Source: Bacteroidales bacterium
Lineage (GTDB): Bacteria > Bacteroidota > Bacteroidia > Bacteroidales > F082
Direction of reading: 5' to 3'
Length of the DNA stretch: 28,456 bases
Assembly: GCA_024689285.1 (NCBI GenBank)
Contig: JAILDR010000018.1
Span: 1 to 28,456 of the forward strand
A program made the translations under genes and the position numbers. Below, piece by piece: positions 12,506-21,339 of this stretch. Numbering within the stretch: position 1 is the stretch's first letter; the number at the start of each line of letters is the position of its first letter. The notes under the pieces are model-generated. The model saw only the letters and a program-made list of their open reading frames with translations. It ran no database searches and had not been told where the DNA came from.

Positions 12506-12561
12506 ATAAGGTACTCGTTTTCGATTAAGATATTGATTATTAAGAAATCCCTTAAAGGGAT

Positions 12562-12575
12562 GGTTGACAACAACC
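12562..12575. promoter_or_regulatory. Inverted repeat GGTTG-ACAA-CAACC in the nrdD leader, possible operator
   Basis: A perfect 5-bp inverted repeat lies just downstream of the nrdD -7 box, where transcription should begin. A related site, GGTTGTCAACC, occurs at 12740-12750. The position fits an operator, but no known regulator motif matches and the arms are short. Confidence 0.3.
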
Positions 12576-12581
12576 GTTTTG

Positions 12582-12613
12582 CAAAATTAGAGCATTTTGT
12601 GTTTTTGTGTCAA
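12582..12613 (-). promoter_or_regulatory. Promoter of nrdDG
   Basis: Read on the minus strand: TTG (12613-12611), 21 bases, then TAATTTTG (12589-12582). This fits the Bacteroidetes -33/-7 promoter with normal spacing, about 77 bases upstream of the nrdD ATG. Confidence 0.65.
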
Positions 12614-12769
12614 GTGTTTTGGAAGAAAAATTTATCAACAACAATATCAACAATCTATTCTGGTGATACTCTTCAAGTTTCAAAAAACACCCCATTTCAG
12701 CGGCAGGCTGTCTCCTCGGAAACCCTATTTTCGGGTGTCGGTTGTCAACCAAAATCAGGGAAAAAATAG

Positions 12770-12808
12770 TCCGTGTTGCAGTTGTTGCAGTTGTTGCAGT
12801 TATTTTTC
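12770..12808 (+). repeat. 39-bp direct repeat, copy 1 (three GTTGCAGTT units)
   Basis: The copy is TCCG-T, three tandem 9-mers GTTGCAGTT (12775-12801), then ATTTTTC. It is identical base for base to the copy at 13137-13175. Confidence 0.95.
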
Positions 12809-12925
12809 AGGGGTATGGGTGAAGTTTTCGATAGTCAAAACCGGTCAAGATCATTTTGGTCAAAATCGGTTTCTGATGCGGCTGAGGTTAAAATCGTTTT
12901 GTTAAAACTCCATCCTATCCTTGGG

Positions 12926-12969
12926 TAGGAGTTAAGTAGGAGTTAGGTAGGAGTTACATTGGAGTTGGA
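12926..12969 (+). repeat. 11-bp tandem array, four copies
   Basis: Four consecutive 11-mers: TAGGAGTTAAG, TAGGAGTTAGG, TAGGAGTTACA and the more diverged TTGGAGTTGGA. The core is (T)AGGAGTT. Directly upstream, AACTCC at 12906-12911 is an inverted match to the GGAGTT core. Confidence 0.9.
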
Positions 12970-13136
12970 AATTTGGCAGAAATGTTAAATTTGCCCCAAA
13001 ATCACCCCCTTGTTATTGTTAATTTCTTCTTAATTCGTCAAGATAGTCATTTTAGTCATTAGTCAAAATCACTTTGACACCTTGACACTTTGACACCGTT
13101 AGAACGTATACAACTTATAATCAAAGCATTAGGATT

Positions 13137-13175
13137 TCCGTGTTGCAGTTGTTGCAGTTGTTGCAGTTATTTTTC
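13137..13175 (+). repeat. 39-bp direct repeat, copy 2 (three GTTGCAGTT units)
   Basis: Identical to 12770-12808 over 39 bases, with unit array 13142-13168. The flanking bases differ on both sides (T versus G upstream, G versus A downstream), so the repeat ends are sharp. Confidence 0.95.
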
Positions 13176-13199
13176 GAGGGTAAGAAGCCGTTTGCTATG

Positions 13200-13218
13200 A
13201 GAGAAACGTCGTTTCTCT
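13200..13218. repeat. 8-bp perfect hairpin AGAGAAAC-GTC-GTTTCTCT
   Basis: A perfect 8-bp stem with a 3-base loop. The AGAGAAA/TTTCTCT word recurs in the larger hairpin at 13300-13340 and again at 13344-13350. A further 6-bp hairpin, GGAGCA/TGCTCC, lies at 13242-13259. Confidence 0.8.
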
Positions 13219-13299
13219 TGCAGAGATACTTTGTTTCTCTGGGAGCAGGGGTTTGCTCCGTTCTAACCGAGAGTTTTATCCATTAGCCTTCCCCAATTT

Positions 13300-13340
13300 A
13301 GCGATAAGCCTTTTCTCTGCCAGAGAGAAGGCTTATCGCT
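13300..13340. repeat. 19-bp stem hairpin with GCC loop
   Basis: Bases 13300-13318 pair with 13322-13340 over 19 positions, all Watson-Crick except one T-G wobble at 13313/13327, around loop GCC (13319-13321). The outer arm word is AGCGATAAGCCTT. A partial third copy of the right arm (GAGAGAAAAGGCTT) follows at 13343-13356. There is no T-run next to it, so it does not look like a terminator for a gene. Confidence 0.9.
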
Positions 13341-13460
13341 TCGAGAGAAAAGGCTTGTTGCTCAAAGCGGCTTTTTTCGAGTCATCGTTATGCGGATTGT
13401 GGCTGTGTTTCAAACTGAGATTTGAGACTGGGAGGCCTATTGTTTTGTTCTCCACAAGAA

Positions 13461-13481
13461 ACAAATTTTACCCAAATTTGT
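13461..13481. repeat. Hairpin ACAAATTT-TACCC-AAATTTGT
   Basis: A perfect 8-bp inverted repeat with a 5-base loop inside the repeat-rich island. Confidence 0.75.
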
Positions 13482-13487
13482 TCTTTA

Positions 13488-13534
13488 CAAAAAACATTTT
13501 CTGCCTGATTTTGTATTTTGCAAAAAACATTTTC
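13488..13534 (+). repeat. 14-bp direct repeat pair CAAAAAACATTTTC
   Basis: Identical 14-mers at 13488-13501 and 13521-13534, with starts 33 bp apart. Confidence 0.85.
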
Positions 13535-13856
13535 CACAAAATACCGCTTTGGGCGTTTGGGTTCCTATATTGAATTAGTAGCCAGAGACTGCTGTTTTCT
13601 GCATCAAAGATGTCCAAAACCGAGAGAAGACCCTTCGAAACGAGGTCTGAAACTGATTTTTCAGAACGAATGTTTTTGTAAAAAGTAGGGTAAAACTACC
13701 AAAACAAGGGATTCTTGCCCGCATTTTGAGGCTTTTTAGCTGGAAAAAGCAGCTCTTTTTGTGCCATTTTCGAGGTTTGTGACAGACATCCGTTTATCCC
13801 TTATTATCGTAACTTATTGTAATTGTGGTTTTTATACAATATCAAAACAATCAAGC

Positions 13857-14014
13857 GTTTCAGTTTCAGTTGTTTCAATTGTATTTTAAAGGGGTGTCAA
13901 TTCTTGCTATGTTTATATAACTTACTAATTATTAATTAGTTATATAGTATTATAAAGGGAAAATGAAACATGACTGTACCTCTGAAACACAATTGAAACT
14001 GAAACAACTGAAAC
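13857..14014. repeat. Inverted GTTTCA arrays flanking an AT-rich palindrome
   Basis: The left array 13857-13881 reads (GTTTCA)2-GTT-GTTTCA-ATTG. The right array 13990-14014, read on the other strand, is GTTTCA-GTT-(GTTTCA)2-ATTG. Both are 25 bases long and made of the same parts, with only the GTT spacer moved. Between them lies an AT-rich stretch with the palindrome ACTAATTA-T-TAATTAGT (13924-13940). The right array ends 22 bases before the helicase stop codon. Function unknown; the layout recalls paired binding arrays around a meltable core. Confidence 0.8.
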
Positions 14015-14036
14015 AAATGGAACTGTTTGGGAGTTT

Positions 14037-17000
14037 TCAAGAACGCTTATGTTTAAGTGGGCAAAGATCTATTAATAGGTTGTCCTCTTCCTCTGGGGTC
14101 AATGAGCAATCCAAAGCTTCTGCAAGTTCTTCCTGTCTTGGCTGACCAAAAGTCAATCGGTACAATCCAAGTATACGCTTCATATTTTCATATCTCTGTA
14201 TATCCTGACTAAATTGGTAGAGCGGCACTATTCTCTCGACGCTCACCCCATCAGCATCAAAATGCCAACTTGGAACTATATCACACGGGAATTTTGCATT
14301 GGCCTTATCTTGTTCAGCCTTATCAAACAAATAATCCCAAGGATTATTCAGGCCTGCTACCGTTTTACCATATTTATCGGCAACTCGCTGACGAATCACC
14401 TTCCCTCTATACCTGTTAATACGTCCTTCTCTTTGCTCAAAATCAATAGGATTATTAGGAAGGTTCCAATGTATTATGCGTCTGCAATACCAATGGAAGT
14501 CCAAGCCTTCTTGTCCAATACTTGTGGTGGCAAGGACAAACGGGCGGAAAGGAGAGTTGAATGCCTCCCTGATATTTGTAGCTCGCACCTCACTTCCTTC
14601 ATTACTCTTAGCATTAACTCCAAACGCGGCAGCAAAATGTGATCGCATGTTGTGACGGACATCCTCGTCTTCAGATTCATTCTTACAAAAACTAGCAGCA
14701 TCATCAACCTTCATTCTTGTGGTTCGAATAGTTAATGCACGGCACAAAGCTGAAGTTATCCCTTCTATATCATCATAATCGTTACGGAGCAAAAACACAT
14801 ATTCATCCAAAACAGCCTGAATATTACCGTCGACACAATATGACAAGACTTTCTGCCAATAATCCATCTCTTTTCCTGAATACTGAATCTCTACAGCAGC
14901 GATGCTTTCTGGTTTATTGAACAAATCTATAAATGCCAAACCGATACGGAAAGCAGCTGGCAACACCTCATGGTCATCTGAATAATAACGCTTCAAGGCC
15001 CTATATGCACAAATAGCTGGCGAACCAAAAGACAAAAGCATCATGATTTTGGCTTGTTTGGCTGTCTCATTTGAGGTCGGTTTCTTGGGGAACGAGGGGA
15101 AGGACTTATCTTTCAATATTCTGCAAAGTCTGGGGATATACTCTTTTGTAAGTAGATTGTCCTTCTCTGAATTCTTATAATCTTTTTTAATTCTGTTCGA
15201 TACAGAGTCCAACCATCTGTTGTTGTATTTACTGTCCACAACCATTGGAAAACACCAACTGATATGTGTGCCTTCCCTGTCTTCATAATTACCATTCTGG
15301 AGACAAATCGCTTTGATCTTTTTTTGCAAATCCCCGCCAAACAGCTTGACTATCTGTTTGAATGTTTGTCCCTTATTAATGAATTGCAAGGGGTCAGCTA
15401 AATGTGCTAATGATCTGCTCGGATATGCCAGCAGAAGTGTTGTCATATTTTTTTCGTCTTTTGCAAACTTCAGCCTCCTGAGTGGTCTGCGGGCTGTGTC
15501 TCCTTGGTTTGCAACACGCTTATCTACGAAATACTTTATACCCTCATTATTTGGCAGTCTGCCAATGCTCATCTTTTCTGCTTCATACGAAACAAGTGTG
15601 GCAATCATCTTAGGGACCAACTTCCATGCTGAGAAAATGAGTGTTTTCGTAAACTTTTCTTGACCATAATATATTCCACCTTTTGGATATGGATAATATG
15701 GTAGCGCAGGAGGACACCAGAGCATTTTAGCTTCCTTCTCAACACCTCTCATTAGCAAATTTAGCTTCTCATTTGGCCAACGCTTAACTTTTGGGAAAAC
15801 ATATTTATTGACCTCGGTCAGATTAACGAATGCGTTTTTTAGACGTGCCAAGTCCATGTTCTGTGCTTTCTCGCCAACCTTATAGTCTCTAAGATAGGAC
15901 ATCGCGTATGGAGCTGACTTGGCATAGTCAATAGGGGAAGGGGCATGCTCGCCTTTACTCTCATAAATGGTGCAGAAAACCTTATCCAATTGGATGAAGT
16001 CATCAATCTCCTGTTTGGTGATAGGAAGAAGTCTATCCTTATTCACATCTACAATCATAGCATTTGGATCCTTCGAAGCTATGATTTTCTCTGTCCTTAC
16101 CATCACCATAGAATAGAAGTTCTGCAGATACTCCTTTAATCCTTTTATTTCTTCCATTATTGGAGAACGGTCTTTGGTATTGGCCAGCTGCAGCATGAGT
16201 GTATAGAGACGGTCACGTGCCTCTTCATATTTCTTCCAGTCAGGTTCTTGATCTGCATATAGGAATTTCAGCACTCGCATAAACTCTCTGTAATGCTGTT
16301 CTCCCTTGCTTTCATCATATTGGTTGGTAAACGCTTTAAAGGGTGTAGCGCTCAGCATGAGGACTTTTGCCTTTGTCTGTCCCAATACCTTTTGAGCAAT
16401 AGTAGACTGCTCACTTTGGTCTTTTGTCTCAATTAACTGGCTGTATCGCTGGAACTCATCCATAATATAGATATCAGCCTCTAATAATTCAAGGCACGCA
16501 TCCACCATCAGTTTTCGCAATGTCCCAACGGTTTCGTAGTATATGTCCGAGGTAACACAATTCCTTCTGAATGAAGGAAGTATAGCCTGTAATAGTTCCA
16601 TTAACGTCATCGGCATCTGTAAATCAAACAAGCGATAACATTCAGGTGCGCTCTTTATAGAAACTGGATAGTTTCGAACAGATTCAATAAACCGTTCCGC
16701 TACATTATCCCTAATCGCTTTTCGGGGATACCCTTCTTTCGTTGATTTCCAACTATCGACCCACCACGGTCCCATCATCAGCTTTGAGAGTTTGTCCTTG
16801 TATTGTTTAATCATGGGTTCTTCTTCCAGTATTGCATAGATAATGGCTCTTTCTCCCTTGATACCCATAGCGGATCTTTCGGTAAACGATGTGTCTGGAG
16901 TTAAAGAGTAAATATGTAGCGGAACATCAACACTAGTCGGTTTTAATGCAAGAAGAGTTATTCTGTCTACTTGACTGATAATACAATTCTTGTTACCCGT

Positions 17001-17282
17001 AAAATTTACTTTTGGCAAGTTCTGTGCCGCCAATTGCTTGTTGGAACAAATATAATACACGTTTAAGTAGTCCTTTTGATGGTGCATATCAGTAGCCCAT
17101 CGCTCGTATGCTTTTGCTATTACTCCTTTAGCGATCCAAGTCTTCCCCAACCCTACTTCATCCGCGACCAACATACGGTTTTGGTGGTCTTCATAGAAAC
17201 GACGGTCAATATAGTCCACAGTAGCCGATTGAAAATCACTCAACCGTTCTTTTACATTCTGTATTTCTTTTTCGTAAATCAT
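14037..17282 (-). CDS. Large SF2/SNF2-like helicase of a putative defence operon
   Basis: A 1081-residue helicase. Motif I is VADEVGLGKT (about 39-48), Walker B is IMDEFQRYS (about 273-281, DEFQ rather than DEAH), and motif III is SATPF (about 311-315). Motif V (TTSIGQEGLDF) and motif VI (QREGRINRYRG, about 950-960) come only near the C-terminus, so the lobes are split by about 600 residues of unrecognised sequence. I chose the ATG at 17282 because its ATGA overlaps the stop of the upstream PLD gene, a sign of coupled translation; a start at 17309 would add MEQIFSLRK. The motifs suggest ATP-driven movement on nucleic acid. Defence role inferred from partners and AT-rich composition. Confidence 0.85.
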   Translation of the reverse strand: MIYEKEIQNVKERLSDFQSATVDYIDRRFYEDHQNRMLVADEVGLGKTWIAKGVIAKAYERWATDMHHQKDYLNVYYICSNKQLAAQNLPKVNFTGNKNCIISQVDRITLLALKPTSVDVPLHIYSLTPDTSFTERSAMGIKGERAIIYAILEEEPMIKQYKDKLSKLMMGPWWVDSWKSTKEGYPRKAIRDNVAERFIESVRNYPVSIKSAPECYRLFDLQMPMTLMELLQAILPSFRRNCVTSDIYYETVGTLRKLMVDACLELLEADIYIMDEFQRYSQLIETKDQSEQSTIAQKVLGQTKAKVLMLSATPFKAFTNQYDESKGEQHYREFMRVLKFLYADQEPDWKKYEEARDRLYTLMLQLANTKDRSPIMEEIKGLKEYLQNFYSMVMVRTEKIIASKDPNAMIVDVNKDRLLPITKQEIDDFIQLDKVFCTIYESKGEHAPSPIDYAKSAPYAMSYLRDYKVGEKAQNMDLARLKNAFVNLTEVNKYVFPKVKRWPNEKLNLLMRGVEKEAKMLWCPPALPYYPYPKGGIYYGQEKFTKTLIFSAWKLVPKMIATLVSYEAEKMSIGRLPNNEGIKYFVDKRVANQGDTARRPLRRLKFAKDEKNMTTLLLAYPSRSLAHLADPLQFINKGQTFKQIVKLFGGDLQKKIKAICLQNGNYEDREGTHISWCFPMVVDSKYNNRWLDSVSNRIKKDYKNSEKDNLLTKEYIPRLCRILKDKSFPSFPKKPTSNETAKQAKIMMLLSFGSPAICAYRALKRYYSDDHEVLPAAFRIGLAFIDLFNKPESIAAVEIQYSGKEMDYWQKVLSYCVDGNIQAVLDEYVFLLRNDYDDIEGITSALCRALTIRTTRMKVDDAASFCKNESEDEDVRHNMRSHFAAAFGVNAKSNEGSEVRATNIREAFNSPFRPFVLATTSIGQEGLDFHWYCRRIIHWNLPNNPIDFEQREGRINRYRGKVIRQRVADKYGKTVAGLNNPWDYLFDKAEQDKANAKFPCDIVPSWHFDADGVSVERIVPLYQFSQDIQRYENMKRILGLYRLTFGQPRQEELAEALDCSLTPEEEDNLLIDLCPLKHKRS

Positions 17283-19144
17283 TTTGCGTAGACTGAAAAT
17301 TTGTTCCACATATCAAGAAACTCTTTACTCAAAAGGCGTTTCCCGTCTTTTCCATTGACGTTCTTAAGTCTTTCCACGTTCTCTTTAATATTGACTAAAG
17401 CGGTCTTATCCCTACTTGCTGCAAGCATTAATCGTTCATAAATAGGAAGAGAATACGGCTGAATGCTGCTGTTATTTATTGATTGTCGGCCAATCTTTTG
17501 ATCAGATCCAATTTTTTGCATTTCAATGTCCAACCTGTCATCAAGACAAAACATGAGATATCGCATAATCTTTTCTTCATTATCTAGTATTTCTGCCATA
17601 ATCCTACCATGTCTCTCTTCCGGGACAGTAATCGGCAGATGAAGTAGAAATTCTTTTTCAATGTCACTCCATGTTACCGAAACCCTCATGAAAGCAGATA
17701 GCTTTTGACAGCATAGTGGTTTGAAGGAATGCTCATTACTATCTGTCAATATCCATTTGTCTTCCTCATTAGAGAAAGGTGAAAATACAACTTTTACATG
17801 AGCGTATTTTGCATTGAAAGTTTCCCACGCCTTCCGGTTAACAACAACATGAGTGACATACTTTTCTTGGGAATCCAGGATATAATTACCATCATAAGGC
17901 AAATGTGAAACATCATACATTATGCTCCTAAACCTTTTTTCCTTCTCTTTTCCCTCGTCTATGGTAGCAGAATTCTTGATAGTATATTGCTTGATAAGAG
18001 GTGCGTCTGGATTTAGCAATGATTCCAAGACGCTTTTTGGAGATGTCTCTTCGTGATTACTACGCAATTGCACCTGTGCTTCATAATTCGTCCTCAATCC
18101 CCCCTGAGTGCTGTTGGTGGAACCAATAAACCAATTGTTCCATTGGCTCCAATCCTTTCCTAATGCAGCTTTTGCGATAAAGATTTTTGCATGTAGACTT
18201 ATACTACGTCCTAAAGACTCATCTTTGGGCTGACCGCTTTCGTATTCCTCGTAATCAGATGCCTCTTCAAACATGGGGTTCCATTGATAACAATCCCATT
18301 TCTCCAGAGTTTCAGGGGCTATCCTATCCAATTCATATTCCCTGCTAACAAGAATAGGTTTCTTCTTTATCCCTTCTGCCATTTTACCATAAAGGAAATT
18401 AAGGGTCGTGTCGTCAATAAAAGGGCTGATAACCATCAACTCGTAATATTTGTCACTCCTTAGCAAAGGGGAAACATCCTGTTTATTGAAGGTGTAAGGC
18501 CAGAATATTGCAGGTTTTGAGTCAAAGGGATTTGGAGCAGAGAATCTAACTCGTTTTAGCTCCTTGGAGAACTGCTTAATAATTTTATTACGTTCCGTTT
18601 GACTCATTAAGGCTGTCATCATCCTGATAAGCGAGGCATTATCGTCATGCTCATTACCCGTCTGATAACTATCCATTGAAACGGCGATATCAAAGTCGGT
18701 AGCCGCTGTCATGTTTCTGCTCATAACAATGAGCTTATACTTGTATTCTTGTGAATCAAGCAGGTTTTCATAACGAACCAGCCAGACTTTCGGATGGAAA
18801 TTTTGATTTGGACTGTTTAATTTGATATTCCAGATGTTTTGGTCTAAAAAGCCCATTAGCATTGAATAGGCACATTTGGCGGAAATGTTATTCTCATGAA
18901 CAAACACGAAGAGCTTTTCCCTCACCTTATCCAAGGCGTCGAGCATATCGGTCCGCAGGTTTCTTAAATCCGTGGTCTCTGACAGATATTTCCCATGAAA
19001 TAATGCCAATGGTATGCCCATCAGTACTTCAAGATCTAAAGAGTATGTTGTACCAATGGCCCATGAAGTTTGCCATCCTTCATCCGGCATTAGAATTCGT
19101 CCATAGTCTATGCGGTTTGTATGCTCTAAAACTTTCTCGTTCAT
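17279..19144 (-). CDS. Phospholipase D-like protein with two HxK half-sites
   Basis: A 621-residue protein with two PLD-type half-sites. The first is FHPKVWL (H117, K119), followed by MSRNMTAATDFD (141-152). The second is LHAKIFIA (H318, K320), followed by GSTNSTQGG (341-349). The Asp of the classical HxKx4D motif is absent from both, as in many divergent PLD nuclease-like proteins. No signal peptide or membrane span, so cytosolic. PLD folds next to helicases are usually nucleases (for example DrmC in DISARM or NgoFVII-type enzymes), so a nuclease is the best guess, unproven. The gene begins 2 bases after the DUF6361-like gene and overlaps the helicase ATG. About 250 C-terminal residues have no recognised domain. 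Confidence 0.82.
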   Translation of the reverse strand: MNEKVLEHTNRIDYGRILMPDEGWQTSWAIGTTYSLDLEVLMGIPLALFHGKYLSETTDLRNLRTDMLDALDKVREKLFVFVHENNISAKCAYSMLMGFLDQNIWNIKLNSPNQNFHPKVWLVRYENLLDSQEYKYKLIVMSRNMTAATDFDIAVSMDSYQTGNEHDDNASLIRMMTALMSQTERNKIIKQFSKELKRVRFSAPNPFDSKPAIFWPYTFNKQDVSPLLRSDKYYELMVISPFIDDTTLNFLYGKMAEGIKKKPILVSREYELDRIAPETLEKWDCYQWNPMFEEASDYEEYESGQPKDESLGRSISLHAKIFIAKAALGKDWSQWNNWFIGSTNSTQGGLRTNYEAQVQLRSNHEETSPKSVLESLLNPDAPLIKQYTIKNSATIDEGKEKEKRFRSIMYDVSHLPYDGNYILDSQEKYVTHVVVNRKAWETFNAKYAHVKVVFSPFSNEEDKWILTDSNEHSFKPLCCQKLSAFMRVSVTWSDIEKEFLLHLPITVPEERHGRIMAEILDNEEKIMRYLMFCLDDRLDIEMQKIGSDQKIGRQSINNSSIQPYSLPIYERLMLAASRDKTALVNIKENVERLKNVNGKDGKRLLSKEFLDMWNKFSVYAK

Positions 19145-19146
19145 TT

Positions 19147-20436
19147 CTAATCAATATTGTTCAGTCCATCATACAAGTCTTTCACAATGCTTAATGCCGA
19201 AGCATAACGATAGTTGATAAGTCCAAGACCCACCCATTGTTCTTTCTTGATTTCATCCATATCCTGGCCTTTTTCAATTTTCAGGAAACGACTTTTCGCT
19301 TTCTTGTTCCATCGCTCTTGTGTTTCCACTAAGCTACACAATTTATCTTCTATCTCGTCCCAGGACCTTGACTTACGGACAAGATTCTGAACTTCAATTA
19401 GAAACTTTTCTGTGGGAGATTTGACGTTGGTGCCAACCATGCACTTACATATATCGAAATTCTCTGAATCCATCATTCTATCATTCCGCGTAGAATACCA
19501 CTTTCGGCCTTGTTCCCGTAAATCCGCAATATATTTCTCTGACGCATCGGTATTAACGCGCAGCAGCAGATTATATGCAACGTGTATGCCGTAAAGGAAT
19601 AAGGAAAGGTCGTGAGACATAATCAAATTTTCACGAAGAGTATTGTTCTCTATTTCATCCAAACTTGTCCTGATAAAATGAAGCATCTGGTTACAGAGTG
19701 GGTCTTCTGAATTATAATTGCTTGAAGCAGAAAGGTACTTCTCCCAGAGAGAATTAGATGAAACCAACGCAGCAGGAAGACTGTCAGGAGTATATCTTTT
19801 AAGACGGTCTCGTAAAATCTCAGCCTCAATACGTGATAATGTCAAGCCATGATCTCTAATATATTGCCGCCAATCTGGTGTATATGAAACACCCTCAAAG
19901 CCATAGCCTTTATATTCCCCTTGTTCTTTGGTTGTATCATCACCTCTATTGTTTGAAAGCAATTCCTCCATAGTTGAGTGTTTGTTCAAAAGCAGCTGAT
20001 CAAGAGTGCTGTCTGTTTTGATGAGATGAAGACGGGTCATGCCGTTCCAATAGATTTCCGAAGGTTGCCTCTTCAGGATGCCACTTCTATTTACTTTACC
20101 GAAATAACTCTCTTCACTTCGTTCTGAATGTTCATCATAGAAATTTATGATAATCTTGTTCGTTTCTTCCTCTGCTTTTTTGAAATAGTCTTTTCCTGAT
20201 TTCGACTTATTAGAAGCGATTTCGTTATCTTCTAGGATATATGGGGTGATAAAGAAATACTTGGCTCTAGTATAGAGGGTAGAAAAACCCGGGAACACCT
20301 TGTTTGACATTGCGTCACGAATAATACCAACACCCAATTCGTCAACAACACCTCCCATGCCCATCAGGTCCATAAATTTTCTAATACGGTCTCGATGTCT
20401 TGGTGAAAAGTCTATCCATCCTATTTGTGATGCCAT
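19147..20436 (-). CDS. DUF6361-like protein, first gene of the putative defence operon
   Basis: A 429-residue cytosolic protein. The N-terminus, IGWIDFSPRHRDRIRKFMDLM (5-25), VVDELGVGIIRDAMSNKVFPG (30-50) and STLYTRAKYFFITPYIL (52-68), matches from memory the uncharacterised DUF6361 family, as does SGILKRQPSEIYWNG (118-132). No catalytic motif is visible. Residues 103-110 (HSERSEES) look like the translation of a dispersed bacterial DNA repeat, set in a low-conservation loop. It is preceded by a -7 box at 20505-20512 and lies 2 bases before the PLD gene. Conserved linkage with a helicase and a PLD protein would suggest a sensor or adaptor, but this is a guess. Confidence 0.75.
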   Translation of the reverse strand: MASQIGWIDFSPRHRDRIRKFMDLMGMGGVVDELGVGIIRDAMSNKVFPGFSTLYTRAKYFFITPYILEDNEIASNKSKSGKDYFKKAEEETNKIIINFYDEHSERSEESYFGKVNRSGILKRQPSEIYWNGMTRLHLIKTDSTLDQLLLNKHSTMEELLSNNRGDDTTKEQGEYKGYGFEGVSYTPDWRQYIRDHGLTLSRIEAEILRDRLKRYTPDSLPAALVSSNSLWEKYLSASSNYNSEDPLCNQMLHFIRTSLDEIENNTLRENLIMSHDLSLFLYGIHVAYNLLLRVNTDASEKYIADLREQGRKWYSTRNDRMMDSENFDICKCMVGTNVKSPTEKFLIEVQNLVRKSRSWDEIEDKLCSLVETQERWNKKAKSRFLKIEKGQDMDEIKKEQWVGLGLINYRYASALSIVKDLYDGLNNID

Positions 20437-20504
20437 AATCTTTATTTTATATGAACTACAACAAACATTTTCTACAGGACCTTCATCCTTTAAGAATCAA
20501 CATG

Positions 20505-20512
20505 CAAAGTTA
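20505..20512 (-). promoter_or_regulatory. -7 box for the DUF6361/PLD/helicase operon
   Basis: Read on the minus strand this is TAACTTTG, matching TAnnTTTG, 69 bases before the ATG at 20436. A TTG lies 16 bases further upstream, shorter than ideal. It suggests the operon is transcribed separately from higBA, although no terminator is visible in the 228-base gap after higA. Confidence 0.5.
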
Positions 20513-20664
20513 TAAAAAAGCTTATTTCCAACCGGGAAAGAAACACTTTAATCGGACAAAAGTTCAATTTCGATTCCTAATTTGTTGAAGAGGGCTTACT
20601 GCACAGCACTTTTCAAAGGCTCTTCTTTGAGTATTTTTTAGTCCATGAATTGAAATGGTTTCAT

Positions 20665-21027
20665 TTAGCACCCCATCATCGCCGCAGGCGTAATGTTCAA
20701 AGTGCGGCAAAGCAGACGAGCTATTTTCAAAGTCGGCTCTGCCCTACCAGTCACATAATCGTTGACTCGCGAAGGACTGACACCGATAAGGGACGCCAAC
20801 TGCTTCTGCGTCATTTCCTTTTCTTCGAGAGACAATTCTATCAAGTCGGCCACAGAAGGCTTCGCAATAGGATAATGCTCCTTCTCGTACTCAATCACAA
20901 CATTTGACATCATGGTCAATTCCACAGCGTTTCTGTCATTAGCGGGTGTCTCATCTGTAACCAACGGAAGTAGTTCTTCTATTCTCGCTAAAGCGAATTC
21001 GTATTGTTCTTTCGTGATTCTGCTCAT
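20665..21027 (-). CDS. higA: HigA-type antitoxin, XRE-family repressor
   Basis: A 120-residue protein with a C-terminal helix-turn-helix of the XRE family (MTQKQLASLIGVSPSRVNDYVTGRAEPTLKIARLLCRTL, about 72-110) after an N-terminal helical region. It is located 12 bases after higB, the toxin-first order typical of hig modules. It should neutralise HigB and repress the shared promoter. The HTH placed at the C-terminal end and the length fit the HigA proteins paired with HigB_toxin-family (PF09907-type) toxins. Confidence 0.9.
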   Translation of the reverse strand: MSRITKEQYEFALARIEELLPLVTDETPANDRNAVELTMMSNVVIEYEKEHYPIAKPSVADLIELSLEEKEMTQKQLASLIGVSPSRVNDYVTGRAEPTLKIARLLCRTLNITPAAMMGC

Positions 21028-21039
21028 ATTGCTTTCCTC

Positions 21040-21339
21040 CTATATTGTTGAAACATCGATTTTGTCATAATCGCTATGGGTGCCTACGTACCGAATAAAA
21101 ATATGTCCTATCGTGAATTTTACCACCACCACGAGACGGTATTTGTTTCCCCTAATATTGAACACATATCGTTGGTTTCCTACATAATCCGTAGCTGGAA
21201 AATCAGTTTTGATGTCAGAAAGGTTCTTCCATTCCGCCTCCTCGGCGATTTCATACCAGCGTTCCAAGGCTGTTTTCGCGTCGGCATGTCCTTCCGATTC
21301 ATAGAACTCGACCAGTTTTTTATGTGATACAATTCTCAT
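21040..21339 (-). CDS. higB: HigB-type toxin (RelE-fold mRNA interferase)
   Basis: A 99-residue protein with the HigB_toxin-family signature: an N-terminal helix with FYESEGHADAKTALERWYEIAEEAEW, then NQRYVFNIRGNKYRLVVVVKF and the C-terminal IFIRYVGTHSDYDKID. Members cleave mRNA on the ribosome. The gene appears complete. The -7 box at 21348-21355 is so close to the ATG at 21339 that the transcript would be nearly leaderless, which may keep toxin translation low. The pair sits directly upstream of, and on the same strand as, the helicase/PLD operon. Confidence 0.93.
   Translation of the reverse strand: MRIVSHKKLVEFYESEGHADAKTALERWYEIAEEAEWKNLSDIKTDFPATDYVGNQRYVFNIRGNKYRLVVVVKFTIGHIFIRYVGTHSDYDKIDVSTI

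What the first reader, a model, noticed from the sequence alone, without database searches (positions are those of the whole stretch)
14037..20436. Helicase / two-site PLD / DUF6361-like operon: candidate undescribed defence system
Seen: three minus-strand genes packed with a 2-base gap and an ATGA overlap, encoding a DUF6361-like protein, a cytosolic PLD-fold protein and a 1081-residue SF2 helicase. There is no methyltransferase, DrmB-like protein, protease or restriction-type specificity subunit. Known: helicase plus PLD pairs occur in DISARM (DrmA, DrmC), and PLD folds serve as nucleases in restriction. Inferred: this set is a separate system in which DUF6361 provides sensing or assembly, the helicase tracks nucleic acid and the PLD protein cuts. 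With no modification gene, self-recognition would have to work differently from restriction-modification. I cannot exclude that it is already catalogued under a name I do not know.
Basis: partly seen in the sequence, partly recalled or inferred. Interest (0 to 1): 0.8.

Follow-up and report, generated by a model that had tools for sequence, protein, structure and literature searches.

The report
Azaca anti-phage operon (zacA-zacB-zacC)
The three-gene cluster that looked like an undescribed bacterial immune system is a complete copy of Azaca, an anti-phage system already named and catalogued, although how Azaca works is still unknown.

Summary
Three minus-strand genes (14037-20436) are packed with a 2-base gap and an ATGA overlap. 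They encode a DUF6361 protein, a two-site PLD-fold protein and an SF2 helicase, in an AT-rich island (39.8% GC against about 51%) between core genes of a Bacteroidales chromosome.

The claim that the system is undescribed is wrong. The three proteins match the PADLOC models ZacA, ZacB and ZacC over essentially their full lengths (251, 399 and 914 bits). That is Azaca.

The other guesses hold up. The A-B-C order recurs in 13 of 17 loci found through ZacA and in 14 of 14 ZacC-bearing records opened, of 56 with a match. DUF6361 was found in 3 of 393 genomes of one order, one being the seed. ZacC was not found in the two closest relatives sampled. Several copies sit beside R-M, Mrr, Wadjet or Abi genes.

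ZacB is predicted to be a Tdp1/PLD3-like pseudo-dimer; ZacA is all-helical with no clear match. Most likely ZacC moves along invading DNA and ZacB cuts it. That mechanism is inferred. Interest is low.

The parts
19147..20436 (-). zacA: DUF6361 protein, 429 aa, first gene of the operon; predicted all-helical
   Evidence: PADLOC ZacA 250.8 bits over residues 1-426; Pfam PF19888 52.7 bits; AlphaFold2 mean pLDDT 81.7
17279..19144 (-). zacB: two-site PLD-fold protein, 621 aa; H117xK119..N144 and H318xK320..N344
   Evidence: PADLOC ZacB 399.3 bits over residues 6-617; motifs invariant in 28 aligned members; fold matches Tdp1, PLD3/4, BfiI, SauUSI
14037..17282 (-). zacC: SF2 helicase, 1081 aa from the ATG at 17282 (1090 aa from GTG at 17309)
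   Evidence: PADLOC ZacC 914.5 bits, profile 6-1018 of 1019; Walker A, DEFQR, SATP and QREGR..R motifs invariant in 13 aligned members
20665..21027 (-). Xre/HigA-like antitoxin, 228 bases upstream of zacA; neighbour, not judged part of the system
   Evidence: HTH_3 E 2e-13; no homologue found near other Azaca loci at the cut-offs used
21040..21339 (-). HigB-like toxin; neighbour, not judged part of the system
   Evidence: PF09907 HigB_toxin E 7e-32; PADLOC PD-Lambda-2_A E 2.9e-36

Best explanation
The locus is a complete and apparently intact Azaca anti-phage system, probably acquired horizontally, placed between nrdD and ftsX of a Bacteroidales chromosome next to a HigBA-type toxin-antitoxin pair. 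Shown: the gene content and order, full-length matches to the Azaca models, intact helicase and PLD motifs, no match in the two closest relatives sampled, and an AT-rich composition. Inferred: ZacA, ZacB and ZacC act as one complex. ZacC uses ATP to load on and move along invading DNA. ZacB, a single-chain pseudo-dimer with one metal-independent active site made of two HxK...N motifs, cuts the phosphodiester backbone. The helical ZacA protein senses a trigger or couples the other two. With no methylase in the operon, self is probably spared by what triggers loading (DNA ends, a replication intermediate, a phage protein or a modified base), not by host marking. The confidence below is for the identity as Azaca; for direct cutting of invading DNA, by whatever trigger, I hold about 0.6.
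Against: No activity was measured. Nothing computed shows that the three proteins form a complex or that the target is DNA rather than RNA. Pfam finds no PLD domain in the window's own ZacB. ZacA has no clear structural match, and part of its conserved N-terminus lies in a stretch modelled with pLDDT under 50, so its role is a guess. The scanned neighbours of several copies are metabolic, regulatory, membrane or unassigned proteins, so linkage to defence is frequent but not constant.
Confidence: 0.95

Rival explanations
1. Azaca, but working as a genome-integrity sensor that kills the cell: the helicase holds the nuclease in check on intact DNA and frees it when it meets damaged or replicating phage DNA, so host DNA is destroyed too (abortive infection).
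For: Hachiman is described in the start of its abstract (PMC12278908, listing) as a nuclease-helicase complex whose helicase restrains the nuclease on intact DNA and reacts to damage; that paper placed ZacC in the same helicase tree set (passage). The zac operon has no marking gene among the proteins scanned. That Hachiman acts by abortive infection is recalled.
Against: No relation between ZacB and HamA was tested. No growth-arrest data were seen.
Confidence: 0.3
2. A special case of direct cutting: Azaca as an ATP-dependent restriction of modified DNA, like SauUSI. A specificity element in ZacA or in the ZacC insert recognises a modified base, ZacC translocates and ZacB cuts.
Against: No target-recognition domain was found by Pfam in 13 ZacC members. 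SauUSI and BfiI align only to the second half of the ZacB PLD region (residues 208-396 and 211-403).
Confidence: 0.2
3. A DNA repair or end-processing locus, not a defence system.
For: The top Foldseek matches of ZacB are Tdp1, a repair enzyme. An AddAB-like nuclease-helicase pair lies beside or near 5 of 12 annotated plasmid loci.
Against: Sporadic distribution (3 of 393), no match in the closest relatives, plasmid carriage across phyla, and listing as a defence system in papers seen in passages.
Confidence: 0.04

Closest known systems
Azaca (ZacA, ZacB, ZacC; Millman et al. 2022, paper not held here, recalled and cited through papers)
   Same: Same three proteins, full-length profile matches, and the gene order seen in the relatives opened here.
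   Different: Nothing of substance. The only local peculiarity is a HigBA-like toxin-antitoxin pair 228 bases upstream, which was not found at the other loci examined.
DISARM (DrmA/DrmB/DrmC/DrmD with a methylase; composition recalled)
   Same: Helicase plus PLD protein; a few ZacB members match DrmC weakly (best E 1.6e-06) and ZacC matches DrmD in its C-terminal helicase lobe only.
   Different: No methylase or DrmB found; both matches are partial and the helicase one is shared with other SF2 proteins.
SauUSI, BfiI and NgoAVII restriction enzymes
   Same: PLD-fold nucleases, in SauUSI joined to a helicase-like ATPase; structural matches to ZacB.
   Different: SauUSI is a dimer held together by its nuclease domains, with the ATPase in the same enzyme (abstract); ZacB carries both half-sites in one chain and the helicase is a separate protein.
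Hachiman (HamA, HamB)
   Same: Nuclease plus helicase (start of the abstract of PMC12278908).
   Different: Two proteins; no PLD or DUF6361 protein is mentioned in the abstract text seen.
Mokosh types I and II
   Same: Listed together with Azaca as systems with a PLD-like domain (passage).
   Different: No Mokosh model was listed at E <= 0.1, though I did not check that the library holds one; no DUF6361 protein is recalled in Mokosh.

Membership tests
Azaca | ZacA (DUF6361) protein | tested here: met
   PADLOC ZacA 250.8 bits, residues 1-426, profile 1-395 of 396; PF19888 over cut-off
Azaca | ZacB PLD-fold protein | tested here: met
   PADLOC ZacB 399.3 bits, profile 2-578 of 586; two invariant HxK...N motifs; PLD fold
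Azaca | ZacC SF2 helicase | tested here: met
   PADLOC ZacC 914.5 bits, profile 6-1018 of 1019; motifs intact
Azaca | three genes adjacent, order A-B-C, one strand | tested here: met
   2-base gap and ATGA overlap; same order in the relatives
Azaca | protects against phage | not testable with these tools
   needs an experiment
DISARM | DrmB (DUF1998) and a DNA methylase beside the helicase and PLD genes | tested here: not met
   no such match among the window proteins scanned (20 with Pfam; 5 with PADLOC)
DISARM | full-length DrmA or DrmD helicase and DrmC | tested here: not met
   only partial matches: DrmD residues 909-968, DrmC E 0.0079; NCBIfam DrmD 54 bits against a cut-off of 610
Mokosh | MkoA/MkoB or the MkoC helicase-PLD protein (names recalled) | tested here: inconclusive
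   no Mokosh model listed at E <= 0.1 for any of the three proteins, but presence of Mokosh models in the library was not checked
Restriction enzyme of the SauUSI kind | PLD nuclease, helicase-like ATPase and target-recognition domain in one chain | tested here: not met
   nuclease and helicase are separate genes; no recognition domain by Pfam
PD-Lambda-2 (for the upstream HigBA-like pair) | all its genes, with a long B protein | tested here: not met
   A matches full length; B covers only positions 9-117 of a 402-position profile; the next gene is zacA

The most novel reading that the evidence does not exclude
Azaca is directed at DNA ends or DNA-protein adducts rather than at internal sites. 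ZacB would be a Tdp1-like end-processing phosphodiesterase that ZacC delivers to the ends, nicks or protein-capped termini of invading phage or conjugating plasmid DNA, with an AddAB-like end-resection pair as an optional partner. Support is the Tdp1/PLD3-like pseudo-dimer fold, the HxK...N form of both motifs, and an AddAB-like pair beside or near 5 of 12 annotated plasmid copies, all five in Hyphomicrobiales (two further Hyphomicrobiales copies opened lack it).
Probability: 0.1. Interest if true: 0.55.

Novelty: already known. Interest (0 to 1): 0.15.

Why it matters
It settles that the locus is a catalogued system and not a new one. It also gives a set of Azaca relatives from Bacteroidota, Actinomycetota, Pseudomonadota and Archaea, with invariant residues for mutational tests, and a structural reading of ZacB (Tdp1/PLD3-like pseudo-dimer) for a system whose mechanism one 2026 review still lists as unknown (PMC12926258, passage).

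Tried and rejected
New system: rejected on the full-length ZacA/ZacB/ZacC matches. DISARM and SauUSI-type membership: rejected, see Membership tests; Mokosh: inconclusive. HigBA pair as a fourth and fifth component: not supported, since no homologue of either protein was found in the loci examined (27 loci at E 1e-3, some being overlapping copies of one place; 23 loci at E 1e-4, six of them relatives' ftsX regions and one an Azaca contig end); the proteins are small, so distant ones could be missed. Core-genome repair locus: rejected on sporadic distribution. Virus-borne: a scan of viral contigs with ZacA found no relative; one record in the phage collection carries the operon but looks like an integrative element.

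Full report
What is there. The three ORFs are at the stated places and strand: zacA 19147-20436, zacB 17279-19144 and zacC 14037-17309 or, from the in-frame ATG at residue 10, 14037-17282. The 2-base gap and the ATGA overlap follow from these coordinates, the translations and the bases. GC is 39.8% in 12506-21339, against 51.0% to the left and 51.6% to the right (sliding windows). The flanks are ordinary chromosomal genes: nrdD and an nrdG-like gene, a Dpp7-like peptidase, PSP1, gldH, a penicillin-binding protein and obg to the left; ftsX, a DUF3098 gene, uppP, truB, queA and a class II aminoacyl-tRNA synthetase to the right. No tRNA gene was found. Upstream of zacA on the same strand lie a HigB-like toxin and an Xre antitoxin.

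What it is. Against PADLOC the helicase matches ZacC (914.5 bits, E 3.3e-275, profile 6-1018 of 1019), the PLD protein matches ZacB (399.3 bits, E 8.7e-120, 2-578 of 586) and the DUF6361 protein matches ZacA (250.8 bits, E 8.5e-75, 1-395 of 396). These three are the Azaca system. NCBIfam has no model over its cut-off for them, and Pfam names only the DUF and the helicase lobes. Papers seen in passages name Azaca: as a system with a PLD-like domain citing Millman et al. 2022 (PMC10952713), as the owner of helicase ZacC (PMC12278908), in a table row of systems of unknown mechanism (PMC12926258), in a Pseudomonas island hotspot (PMC12629846), among the systems found in an E. coli genome set (PMC10121019) and as rare in archaea (PMC13321033). 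Twelve held papers contain the word with 'defense system' and 'phage'. The Millman paper itself is not held; what I say of it beyond those passages is recalled.

Linkage. A pattern-based scan of the genome collection (one genome for each of 84,980 species, by the tool's description) with a ZacA alignment gave 29 stretches and 17 confirmed loci. In 13 of 17 zacA, zacB and zacC follow in this order (L002-L006, L008-L014, L016). Not all 13 are whole: in L011 zacC is in two ORFs and in L016 the zacB ORF is short (464 aa). The other four: L001 ends inside zacB, L007 ends inside zacA, L015 has a 62-residue match only, and L017 has a partial zacA without an intact zacB or zacC. Two more genomes found by the DUF6361 profile show the same order (L064, L065; notes one stop inside the zacC match of the second). 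ZacC is also matched in 55 plasmid records, 42 of them over at least 80% of its length, and 1 phage-collection record. I opened 14 of these 56, and all 14 have the A-B-C order. In L051 zacA is seen only by its annotation; in L044 zacB, and in L046 zacA, are annotated in pieces. None of the ten lowest-ranked plasmid records, with partial matches, was opened. The 14 include a Halomarina plasmid, so an archaeon carries it. PF19888 was found in 3 of 393 genomes of the order, one of the three being the seed genome.

Mobility and neighbours. The two closest relatives of the host among 393 genomes searched (FtsX 71% identical; NrdD 94-95%) give no ZacC match. The same query finds zacC in 5 of 5 genomes known to hold it; in the same call G001, whose zacB runs off its contig, gave only a weak partial match, and G006, whose zacA runs off its contig, and two genomes without a known copy gave none. 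Of 122 flanking ORFs listed mechanically (one search lists 125, three of which are the zac genes of L043) I scanned 38. Defence-related neighbours were an Eco57I/MmeI-like methylase and an AAA_15/AAA_21 ATPase (L005), Wadjet JetD with an SbcC-like gene and a NERD-helicase (L008), Mrr (L013, L014), HipA (L003) and a type I R-M set (L043). L009 gave a NADAR protein and L012 a Macro-domain protein, a small-molecule-type methyltransferase and an alcohol dehydrogenase, of uncertain bearing. L002, L004, L006, L010, L011 and L016 gave metabolic, regulatory, gliding, membrane or unassigned proteins. In 12 annotated plasmid regions I saw type I R-M genes on both sides of the operon (L040), AbiE and SbcCD (L042), an Eco57I-type and an N-6 methylase (L050), a VapBC pair (L051), and a PD-(D/E)XK plus UvrD-helicase pair beside or near the operon in 5 of 12 (L042, L044, L045, L049, L051), all Hyphomicrobiales and so not independent; two other Hyphomicrobiales regions (L050, L052) lack it, and L041, L046, L048 and L053 show no clear defence neighbour by annotation beyond integrase, transposases or an HNH endonuclease. 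The HigBA pair of the window was not found beside other copies.

Verdict. The locus is a good, apparently intact Azaca copy and otherwise ordinary.

Noticed in passing
window 20665-21339 (-): HigB-like toxin followed by an Xre antitoxin, 228 bases upstream of zacA on the same strand; matches PD-Lambda-2_A and the start of PD-Lambda-2_B, but the set is incomplete.
   Followed up: partly
window 12506-14036: About 1.5 kb AT-rich stretch without a convincing gene (its small ORFs were not scanned), with a 46-nt repeat in two copies (12770, 13137), an 11-nt tandem unit and a near-perfect 20-nt hairpin at 13300-13340. Possibly the scar or attachment region of the island.
   Followed up: partly
L040 (Haliscomenobacter plasmid pHALHY01): The whole zacABC set lies between hsdM-hsdS and a type I R gene; the phage-collection record L043 also has hsdM, hsdS and hsdR-like genes next to zacABC.
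   Followed up: partly
L042, L044, L045, L049, L051: An AddAB-like PD-(D/E)XK nuclease plus UvrD-helicase pair recurs beside or near zacABC on Hyphomicrobiales plasmids.
   Followed up: no
L043 (MT835621.1, 'Bacteriophage sp.', unverified): The record carries a lysozyme-CHAP protein, an integrase, type I R-M genes, zacABC and an impB/mucB-type polymerase; it looks more like an integrative element than a phage.
   Followed up: no
L015 and L017: Remnants of Azaca: a 62-residue zacA match in Segetibacter and, in Hoyosella, a partial zacA with a zacC helicase-motif match, holding a stop, in another frame of the same stretch, as if the middle of the operon had been lost.
   Followed up: partly
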